A model generated the notes under the pieces. That model had not been told where the DNA came from, did no database searches, and saw only the letters and a list, made by a program, of their open reading frames with translations. 64,000 nt of DNA from positions 62,001 through 126,000 of the forward strand of contig BPHJ01000001.1 in assembly GCA_026003475.1 (NCBI GenBank). The letters run 5' to 3'. Both the position numbers and the translations under genes were made by a program. Of this stretch, positions 61,931 to 64,000 are shown piece after piece (the first letter of the stretch is position 1; every line of letters begins with the position of its first letter). This DNA comes from Candidatus Kapaibacterium sp. (GTDB lineage Bacteria > Bacteroidota > Ignavibacteria > Kapaibacteriales > NICIL-2).

Positions 61931-62593
61931 TCACGGCAACATCCGCACAAACGGCGCAAGCAATTCAGCAGTGCGCAGGTGGGCCAGTACTTTGTCCTCA
62001 ACAAGCGTTGCGACGGCAGCTTTTGCCTCCGATAGCGGAATCTGGTGGTAGTAGGCGAAATGCCAAATGTCAATGGCACCGCCGGTGGAGATGTCCAACA
62101 CCAGCAATTGTTCGGGCGAGAGCGTCTCTCCAGCCGCAAAGCGATTGCGCACCGCTTCGGTGTAGTCGCGTGCTTCTGCTGTCCACTCGAGCATTGCGGG
62201 GAAAAAGTAGTAGTTGTCCGTGCTCATCAAGTCGCAGATAGGAAAGCCCCGTTGTCGGTCCAGGAGCGTCGGCAGGAATGCAACCGATACCACGTACGGT
62301 TCATCGTTGCCGCCCCAAAGATCATCCCAGACCGCTGCATCGGCAGAACGAAGCCACTCGAAAAACTCCTGTTCATACGCTGGCAGTCGGATCAAACCGT
62401 ACGAGCGGAAACGTTCGGCAATGTTCTGGGCAAGTTCGGGCGTGAGTGCATCGAAGATATCAGGGGGAATCGAGACAGGCTTATCTCGTTCCAACGACCG
62501 TTCGAACCAATCGAGAATGGTAGCAGCGTCCACTGGGTACGCGATGGGAAGGTGGAGAAAGTCGCTGCAAAAATGCTGAACTGCTTCGAGCAA
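61931..62593 (-). CDS. Hypothetical protein, possibly linked to type VI secretion
   Basis: 220 residues from a TTG (no in-frame ATG nearby). No signal peptide or membrane helix. Mostly helical with aromatic-rich patches: IAYPVDAATILDWFERSL, PAYEQEFFEWLRSADAAVWDDLWGG, STDNYYFFPAMLEWTAEARDYTEAV. Family not recognised. It follows the TssJ-like lipoprotein on the same strand with a 48-base gap, next to tssK, so it may belong to the secretion locus (an adaptor or effector-related role would be speculation). Ends one base from the convergent gmd stop. Confidence 0.55.
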   Translation of the reverse strand: MLEAVQHFCSDFLHLPIAYPVDAATILDWFERSLERDKPVSIPPDIFDALTPELAQNIAERFRSYGLIRLPAYEQEFFEWLRSADAAVWDDLWGGNDEPYVVSVAFLPTLLDRQRGFPICDLMSTDNYYFFPAMLEWTAEARDYTEAVRNRFAAGETLSPEQLLVLDISTGGAIDIWHFAYYHQIPLSEAKAAVATLVEDKVLAHLRTAELLAPFVRMLP

Positions 62594-62641: not shown

Positions 62642-63061
62642 CTACTTCTTGATGTCGAGTTGATAGGTTGTATCTCCCAAGCGGAGATGCACCGTTGATC
62701 CGACGGGGACACGCGCTCGGTTGGTTGCTGCTGATCCTCCCATGTTGACAAAGACGATCGCCATTTTTACTCCATTCCCGCGCACCGTCTGCTCAGCAAT
62801 TTTTTGTCCGGGCACGAACTCGAAGGAGACAACCTTGAGCACGTCTTCATCTGGATTGTCGCGCAGAACTTGCTCCCGTTTAGCAAACCATTCTTGAGCC
62901 GATAGGGCAATAAGCTGCTGTTCCAGCTCTGGAGAATCAGCAAAGACGATATCCACGGGGACGGGTGCACCGAAGTTGGCATTGTCGTCGGCATCAACTT
63001 GCAGATAGATGCTCGATGAACAGCCTACCCACACAAGAACGCTCACCAGGACCAGTCGCAT
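62642..63061 (-). CDS. TssJ-like outer-membrane lipoprotein of a type VI secretion system
   Basis: 139 residues from the Met that gives MRLVLVSVLVWVGC (Cys14; the -3 Trp is unusual for a lipobox). The mature domain begins YLQVDADDNANFGAPVPVDIVF, then LEQQLIALSAQEWFAKREQVL and EFVPGQKIAEQTV, ending NRARVPVGSTVHLRLGDTTYQLD. This two-sheet layout with a PVPV strand and a VPG turn resembles the TssJ transthyretin-like lipoprotein that anchors TssM. Family assignment is by eye and context (divergent tssK 256 bases away). Confidence 0.6.
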   Translation of the reverse strand: MRLVLVSVLVWVGCSSSIYLQVDADDNANFGAPVPVDIVFADSPELEQQLIALSAQEWFAKREQVLRDNPDEDVLKVVSFEFVPGQKIAEQTVRGNGVKMAIVFVNMGGSAATNRARVPVGSTVHLRLGDTTYQLDIKK

Positions 63062-63086
63062 GATGGCATCATCGAAGGAGTACAAG

Positions 63087-63094
63087 CAAATTTA
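63087..63094 (-). promoter_or_regulatory. Putative -7 box TAAATTTG for the TssJ-like gene
   Basis: On the minus strand TAAATTTG is a full match to TAnnTTTG, 26 bases upstream of the chosen ATG, in the region shared with tssK. No -33 element recognised. Confidence 0.4.
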
Positions 63095-63317
63095 GCGCCC
63101 GACCGGGGATTGGGATATCAGAAAAACTACGTATTGCACCCGTAGCAATGCCACTCTAAGTTTGCTACTGCGGTCGTGTCGGTAAGAGCGCCATTCGTGT
63201 GGGTAGGTTGCATGCTGTGTACGGCACTTGGCACAGTACTTGCGCTACCAATGCCATGCATGGATACTGCACTCACGATCGGCAGCAACCTGTTTGAATT
63301 GTCCGATAGGAGATCCC

Positions 63318-64000
63318 ATGGACCAATTGTCTGCCCTACAGTCGCCGTTGCACTGGTATGATGGCATGTTGTTGTTGCCGGAGCATTTTCGCTATGGCTT
63401 TGCACGGGGTGAAGCGTTGTTGCATTACCGTCTGATGGCGGTTCATCCATATTGCTGGGGTGTTCGGCAGTACCGATTCAATCCCGCTGCGCTCAGTACA
63501 GGGGTTGCTGAACTTGTCCAGTTGGAAGCGGTTTTTCCTGACGGAGCGGTGGTTTCCTACGATGCAGTTCAGTCAAGCGAACCGTTGCGCATTGACCTTC
63601 GTGCTGCAGCAGAACAGCTTCGCGAGCGTCCGCGCCGCATTTGGATTACCCTTGCCGCCAGTGGTGAAGAAGAACTCCAAGCTGGGTATCGGCGCTACCG
63701 GCTGGGTGAGGCGGAAGTGCTAACCTATGGTGAGCAGCAGCAAGAGCGCAGTCAAGTTCTGGTGCTGGAGCCGCACCTCCAACTTGTGCTTGATGATGTG
63801 TTGCCGGCCCGTCTTGTGGGCATTCCACTGGCAGAAGTTGCCTGGGAACACGAAGCACCCACTCTGACGCCGTATGTTCCGCCATTGCTCCACGTCGAGG
63901 TTGCTTCGCCAGTGGGGCAAATGGTCCAGCAGATTGTCGAGCGGCTCCGGGAAAAAGCCCAGCAATTGGTCAACCGCATCAACAATCCGCAGCCAGGCAT
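63318..64000 (+). CDS. tssK: Type VI secretion baseplate protein TssK, N-terminal part (runs off the window)
   Basis: Open to the right edge; about 227 residues visible, with a strong Shine-Dalgarno (AGGAG) before the ATG. The N-terminal signature LHWYDGMLLLPEHFRYGFARG matches TssK W..GM.L.PqHF, then HPYCWGVRQYRFNPAALSTGV and AVFPDGAVVSYD. Further on, RYRLGEAEVL and LEPHLQLVLDD precede IPLAEVAW, YVPPLLHVEVASPVGQ and a helical segment. TssK joins the T6SS baseplate to the TssJLM membrane complex. The similarity is to classical proteobacterial-type TssK more than to the divergent Bacteroidota T6SSiii form, which is inference. Confidence 0.9.
   Translation, partial: MDQLSALQSPLHWYDGMLLLPEHFRYGFARGEALLHYRLMAVHPYCWGVRQYRFNPAALSTGVAELVQLEAVFPDGAVVSYDAVQSSEPLRIDLRAAAEQLRERPRRIWITLAASGEEELQAGYRRYRLGEAEVLTYGEQQQERSQVLVLEPHLQLVLDDVLPARLVGIPLAEVAWEHEAPTLTPYVPPLLHVEVASPVGQMVQQIVERLREKAQQLVNRINNPQPG

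What the first reader, a model, noticed from the sequence alone, without database searches (positions are those of the whole stretch)
63087..64000. Edge of a type VI secretion locus with a TssJ-like lipoprotein diverging from tssK
TssK is recognisable from its first 227 residues, and the divergent lipoprotein has a TssJ-like layout. Bacteroidota T6SSiii systems characteristically lack TssJ, so a TssJ plus classical-looking TssK in this lineage would suggest a different subtype (canonical membrane complex) and possible horizontal acquisition. The unrecognised 220-aa neighbour could be a locus-specific component.
Basis: partly seen in the sequence, partly recalled or inferred. Interest (0 to 1): 0.66.

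Follow-up and report, generated by a model that had tools for sequence, protein, structure and literature searches.

The report
Type VI secretion locus, H3-type, Chlorobiota
The window ends inside a complete contractile 'spear-gun' (type VI secretion) gene cluster whose outer-membrane anchor protein and cluster layout match a little-studied Pseudomonas system (H3-T6SS), not the special type usually reported from Bacteroidota, so it is a known kind of machine in an unexpected lineage.

Summary
At window 63318-64000(+) lies the first 227 residues of TssK, and at 62642-63061(-) a divergent 139-aa lipoprotein. In the same contig, 125-151 kb, a complete T6SS follows: tssK-L-M-A, a variable 600-aa gene, two LuxR/TPR regulators, tssB-C, two hcp, tssE-F-G, clpV, vgrG, MORN, PAAR. 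TssL, TssM and the sheath/tube genes are type-i families; the T6SSiii membrane gene tssN is absent.

The lipoprotein matches neither Pfam nor NCBIfam TssJ, but it is homologous to Lip3 (PA2364), the TssJ of P. aeruginosa H3-T6SS, and to the gene beside tssK-L-M-A in Azospirillum, Cupriavidus and Paraburkholderia. Profile comparison links this family to canonical TssJ. In 123 genomes of the order it occurs in 8 of 9 with TssK and in none of 114 without, even where it lies far from tssK. TssK and TssC trees group the locus with H3-type systems.

The 220-aa neighbour is an ordinary family-wide gene, present also in T6SS-less relatives. Recent horizontal transfer is not shown: the locus keeps one right-hand neighbour in three species and is missing at that site in two others. 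Verdict: a new member of a known kind (H3-type T6SSi), outside Proteobacteria.

The parts
62642..63061 (-). tssJ of the Lip3 (PA2364) family, 139-aa outer-membrane lipoprotein; lipobox Cys14, +2 Ser
   Evidence: 35% identity over 118 aa to P. aeruginosa Lip3/PA2364, E 9e-14 in a 16-protein database; tblastn hits in plasmids only to Azospirillum, Cupriavidus, Paraburkholderia and P. aeruginosa; hhalign vs canonical TssJ 96%; phyletic linkage to TssK
63318..64000 (+). tssK, first 227 of 444 codons (runs on to G000:126652)
   Evidence: PF05936 6e-46, TIGR03353 193 bits; H3-type clade 100/100 in tree
63062..63317 (.). 256-bp intergenic region between divergent tssJ and tssK, presumed to hold both promoters (inference; not tested)
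   Evidence: sequence layout; the tssJ/tssK divergence is kept in SKW43 and J074
61931..62593 (-). 220-aa ORF: flanking gene, NOT part of the system (listed because the finding names it)
   Evidence: present in all 8 genomes of the family, incl. T6SS-less G027, G143, G173; no homologue beside tssJ in L018/L019

Best explanation
The window's right edge is the start of a complete, intact type VI secretion system of type i, of the P. aeruginosa H3-T6SS kind, in a Chlorobiota bacterium (GTDB: Bacteroidota). [quoted passage not shown] TssK would dock the TssE-F-G/VgrG baseplate on this complex, the TssB/C sheath would contract and drive the Hcp tube with VgrG-PAAR through the envelope, and ClpV would recycle the sheath. 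Shown: gene content, families, homology, trees, co-occurrence. Inferred from known T6SSi: assembly, contraction, targets. The cargo is unknown; the fast-changing 600-aa protein between tssA and the regulators is the best candidate (inference).
For: All 13 type-i core components plus PAAR in one 27-kb block. Lipoprotein homologous to PA2364/Lip3; family found on plasmids only in four proteobacterial genera, and in the four further loci read it lies immediately upstream of tssK-L-M-A. Papers name PA2364 lip3 (PMC3804575) and count a tssJ gene in each P. aeruginosa cluster, H3 included (PMC11751169). Lip3 family vs canonical TssJ: hhalign 96.3%, E 2e-9; mature part only 88.5%, E 2.7e-6 over 116 columns; TssE controls 0.1%. 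AlphaFold model (pLDDT 75): among the PDB matches shown the highest probability and TM-score is S. marcescens TssJ 4a1r (0.54; TM 0.47), then transthyretins, the fold class of TssJ. Co-occurrence: lipoprotein in 8/9 TssK+ and 0/114 TssK- genomes of the order; three of the eight (G128, G155, G170) were not in the query alignment and carry it away from tssK. TssK tree: H3-type clade incl. window 100/100; TssC tree 87/84. H3-type TssMs share the lack of recognisable Pfam central, helical and C2 domains. VgrG-MORN-PAAR/DUF4280 order shared with H3-type loci. T6SSiii TssN absent.
Against: The Foldseek match to TssJ is below significance (E 0.27) on a model built from three sequences; one of 200 column shuffles gave a high hhalign score (133 bits over 35 terminal columns, 6% identity), which looks like a numerical artefact. 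No experiment shows that Lip3 works as TssJ. Hcp is only ~30% identical to PA Hcp3, and TssL is longer than in H3. G228, TssK-positive, has no lipoprotein hit (91% complete, TssK at a contig end).
Confidence: 0.9

Rival explanations
1. It is a Bacteroidota T6SSiii system (TssNQOPR membrane complex) and the lipoprotein is unrelated to TssJ, or a TssR-like protein.
For: The genome lies in GTDB Bacteroidota; in Bacteroidota (NCBI sense) PMC10781749 found only T6SSiii.
Against: TssL (PF09850) and TssM (PF14331) are encoded; TssB/C/Hcp match the type-i families; TssN has no hit over the cut-off in the genome and none over the cut-off in the window's class.
Confidence: 0.01
2. The T6SS is real, but the lipoprotein is an unrelated envelope lipoprotein that happens to lie beside tssK; TssJ is missing or elsewhere.
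For: No Pfam/NCBIfam match; gene is inverted relative to H3 loci; in G128, G155 and G170 it is not next to tssK.
Against: 8/9 vs 0/114 co-occurrence with TssK, including the unlinked cases; same family stands directly upstream of tssK in proteobacterial H3-type loci and in G111/G104; no PF12790 TssJ anywhere in the genome even at E 10; profile match to TssJ.
Confidence: 0.05
3. The locus was acquired recently by horizontal transfer from Proteobacteria.
For: Patchy: TssK in 9 of 123 order genomes and 3 of 6 genus members; H3-type relatives in alpha-, beta- and gammaproteobacteria; locus GC 54.5% vs 57% (window) and 56% (right flank).
Against: The window's TssK is only 28-35% identical to those of other families of the order but 50-70% within the family; right neighbour (methylmalonyl-CoA mutase) is the same in G000, SKW43/G172 and J074/G171 and the same site is empty in G143 and G027, which fits one old presence and losses; trees do not reject a single Chlorobiota group (p-AU 0.31, 0.34).
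Confidence: 0.1

Closest known systems
Pseudomonas aeruginosa H3-T6SS (HSI-III, PA2359-PA2373; lip3 = PA2364)
   Same: Lip3-type TssJ, tssK-L-M-A order, tssB-C-hcp-E-F-G-clpV order, VgrG followed by MORN/YwqK then PAAR-like protein, TssC 62%, ClpV 52%, TssB 49% identical; TssM with only the N-terminal Pfam domain recognisable
   Different: tssJ is inverted away from tssK; both halves run in one direction with regulators between; TssL carries an OmpA domain (452 vs 252 aa); two hcp genes; LuxR/TPR regulators instead of a sigma-54 activator; PAAR (PF05488) instead of DUF4280; extra 600-aa protein
Canonical T6SSi with SciN-type TssJ (seen in G004, G119, G131 of the same class)
   Same: Type-i membrane complex TssJLM
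   Different: TssJ matches PF12790 (G004, G119), TssK in a separate clade (100/100), TssM of G119 with full IcmF domains
Bacteroidota T6SSiii (B. fragilis GA3 etc.)
   Same: Contractile sheath, tube, baseplate
   Different: No TssN here; has TssL/TssM and a TssJ

Membership tests
T6SS type i | TssB/TssC sheath of the VipA/VipB families and Hcp of PF05638 | tested here: met
   PF05591 1e-58, PF05943 4e-135, PF18945 3e-44, PF05638 2e-29
T6SS type i | Inner-membrane TssL (DotU) and TssM (IcmF) | tested here: met
   PF09850 6e-31, PF14331 1e-45
T6SS type i | Outer-membrane lipoprotein TssJ | tested here: met
   By homology to Lip3 and profile match to TssJ; not by PF12790, which gives no hit
T6SS type i | Baseplate TssE, F, G, K; ClpV; VgrG; PAAR; TssA | tested here: met
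   family matches above cut-offs
H3-T6SS clade | TssK and TssC group with P. aeruginosa H3 and relatives, apart from other T6SSi | tested here: met
   TssK 100/100; TssC 87/84, weaker
H3-T6SS clade | Lip3 gene directly upstream of and co-oriented with tssK | tested here: not met
   Adjacent but divergent here; co-oriented in G111/G104; unlinked in G128, G155 and G170. A matter of layout, not a defining feature of the machine
TssJ (SciN, PF12790) | Match to the curated TssJ model | tested here: not met
   No hit for the window protein, SKW43, G111, G104, G128, G155 or PA2364 itself; positive controls L015 and L017 hit at 7e-18 and 5e-22
TssJ (fold) | Transthyretin-like beta-sandwich binding the TssM periplasmic domain | tested here: inconclusive
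   Model pLDDT 75; best TM 0.47 to 4a1r, E 0.27. Binding not testable here
T6SSiii | TssN membrane-complex protein (PF17555), no TssL/M | tested here: not met
Secreting T6SS | Hcp release / contact-dependent delivery | not testable with these tools
   No experiment; all core reading frames are intact

The most novel reading that the evidence does not exclude
The H3-type machine has its own class of trans-envelope complex: a Lip3 lipoprotein and a TssM whose periplasmic part has been replaced or remodelled together, spread across Chlorobiota and Proteobacteria as a distinct membrane-complex lineage overlooked because no curated model sees Lip3 or the TssM C-terminal part.
Probability: 0.15. Interest if true: 0.6.

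Novelty: new member of a known kind. Interest (0 to 1): 0.42.

Why it matters
A 2024 survey of 1253 complete Bacteroidota genomes states that T6SSiii is the only type in the phylum and that no genome there had a type-i-like membrane complex (PMC10781749). That probably used NCBI's narrower phylum (the nearest named relatives here are filed as Chlorobiota). In the GTDB phylum, 17 of 392 sampled genomes carry TssM, none of them with a TssN hit over the cut-off, which 23 others have. The type-i membrane complex therefore sits in lineages of the same GTDB phylum as the T6SSiii carriers, which bears on how the T6SSiii complex replaced, or arose beside, the TssJLM one. It also shows that standard models miss a whole TssJ family, so scans that demand PF12790 would call such systems incomplete.

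Tried and rejected
Sequence search of PDB with the Lip3 profile: only chance hits (CTR9), best E 0.19. PF12790 over the whole genome at E 10: nothing. Using a Nitrospirillum locus as centre for a phylum-wide Lip3 search failed, the tool wants a genome handle; plasmid tblastn was used instead. Structure prediction is restricted to window, L018 and L019 sequences, so a deep alignment could not be used. Rejected: 220-aa ORF as T6SS component; T6SSiii.

Full report
What was checked. The window is G000:C1:62001-126000 of a 2.16-Mb single-contig genome. TssK starts at window 63318 and is cut by the window edge after 227 codons; in the contig it is 444 aa. The 139-aa lipoprotein is at 62642-63061(-). 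Both are real and above family thresholds or backed by homology.

What follows to the right. In contig coordinates: tssJ 124642-125061(-), tssK 125318-126652, tssL 126657-128015 (DotU + OmpA domain), tssM 128018-131989, tssA 132021-133133, a 600-aa protein 133225-135027, two TPR/LuxR-like regulators 135047-138603(-), tssB 138760-139323, tssC 139329-140804, hcp1 140865-141362, hcp2 to 141883, tssE 142229-142735, tssF 142716-144527, tssG 144488-145663, clpV 145692-148373, vgrG 148485-150461, MORN protein 150480-151121, PAAR 151180-151473, then methylmalonyl-CoA mutase. All 13 type-i core components and a PAAR are there and intact.

What the lipoprotein is. Pfam and NCBIfam give nothing, and PF12790 finds nothing in the genome even at E 10. 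In the listed plasmid hits for TssC the best is the H3-T6SS of P. aeruginosa (62%), and in that locus the gene directly upstream of tssK, PA2364, is homologous to the lipoprotein (35% over 118 aa). PA2364 is lip3 in PMC3804575 and PMC9866239, and PMC11751169 lists a tssJ among the apparatus genes of each cluster. PA2364 itself does not match PF12790 either, while two ordinary TssJ from the same class do. A search of 72,556 plasmids with PA2364 or the window protein hits only Azospirillum, Cupriavidus, Paraburkholderia and P. aeruginosa, and the four further loci read carry it immediately upstream of tssK-L-M-A in H3-type clusters. Invariant positions of the 13-member family include the lipobox Cys, N29, A55, W58-F59, E81, P84, Q86 and R115.

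Is it TssJ by descent? Profile-profile comparison of the 13 Lip3 rows with seven ordinary TssJ gives 96.3%, E 2e-9; TssE controls give 0.1%. Without the signal peptides it is 88.5%, 40.7 bits over 116 columns; of 200 column shuffles 199 stay at or below 22.3 bits and one gives 133 bits over 35 terminal columns at 6% identity, which I take as an artefact. The AlphaFold model (pLDDT 75, three sequences) has two strands, two helices, then six strands. No PDB match is significant, but the highest probability and TM-score of the matches shown is S. marcescens TssJ 4a1r (0.54, TM 0.47), followed by transthyretins.

Functional linkage. In 123 genomes of the order, the family is found in 8 and TssK in 9; all 8 are TssK-positive (hypergeometric about 1e-11, worked out by hand and not corrected for kinship). 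Leaving out the five genomes used to build the query, 3 of 4 TssK-positive and 0 of 114 others carry it (about 1.5e-5). In those three it is not next to tssK: behind PAAR in G128, on a contig without tssK in G155 and G170. Linkage without adjacency is what a machine part should show.

Placement. The TssK tree separates the window, its order relatives, P. aeruginosa H3, Azospirillum, Cupriavidus and Paraburkholderia from all other sampled T6SSi with 100/100, including those of the same class. TssC agrees more weakly, 87/84. TssM of this clade shows only the N-terminal Pfam domain (plus one sub-threshold trace of the C2 domain in the window protein), whereas an ordinary TssM shows all four: the TssM part that holds TssJ and TssJ itself have diverged together (inference).

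Neighbours and history. The 220-aa protein is in all eight family genomes, T6SS or not. The site: in G143, which has no T6SS, a homologue of the 434-aa gene that neighbours tssJ in SKW43 lies 1.25 kb from methylmalonyl-CoA mutase; in SKW43/G172 the T6SS lies between these two genes (on two contigs), and in the window's genome and J074/G171 the right side is the same; G027 is empty there too. The left side in the window's genome is rearranged. This fits an old insertion with losses better than a recent arrival, but the trees do not settle it.

Phylum context. In 392 GTDB-Bacteroidota genomes, TssM (T6SSi) is in 17 and TssN (T6SSiii, over cut-off) in 23, with no overlap; no TssN over cut-off in the window's class. 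PMC10781749 reports none of the former in its Bacteroidota set. The nearest named relatives are 'Chlorobiota bacterium' MAGs SKW43 and J074. The paper library holds no paper naming both type VI secretion and Kapabacteria, and the three that hold both T6SS and Chlorobiota mention each once.

Mechanism. Steps after gene content (assembly, contraction, delivery) are inferred from T6SSi in general. Cargo is unknown. The 600-aa protein (48% GC, a hydrophobic hairpin near residues 255-300, only about 30% identical to its J074 counterpart while TssM is 67%, found in 2 of 8 family genomes) is the best cargo candidate.

Noticed in passing
G000:133225-135027 (L002:15225-17027): 600-aa protein between tssA and the regulators: Pro-rich start, hydrophobic hairpin, low GC, homologue only in J074/G171 at the same place (about 30% identity). 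Candidate T6SS cargo; function unknown.
   Followed up: partly
G000:150480-151121; also L034, L078, L079, L013, L040: A MORN/YwqK-like repeat protein stands next to vgrG in H3-type loci of Chlorobiota and Proteobacteria, mostly between vgrG and the PAAR/DUF4280 gene; possible spike adaptor.
   Followed up: no
G004, G054, G119, G131 (L006, L015-L017): A second kind of T6SSi in the same class, with canonical TssK; TssJ matches PF12790 in G004 and G119, and their TssC is very divergent (branch 2.2 in the TssC tree).
   Followed up: partly
L045-L047, L049-L053 (G260, G273, G276, G349, G385, G418, G504, G511): TssM with strong PF14331 hits in GTDB-Bacteroidota genomes outside the window's class; organisms unnamed, not examined further.
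   Followed up: no
L034:16695-17171: PA2364/Lip3 is annotated 'hypothetical protein' although it fills the TssJ slot; a family model built from this group would recover TssJ in H3-type loci.
   Followed up: yes
L031 (G171/J074, tssK): tssK of MAG J074 has one in-frame TGA; assembly error or decay not decided.
   Followed up: no
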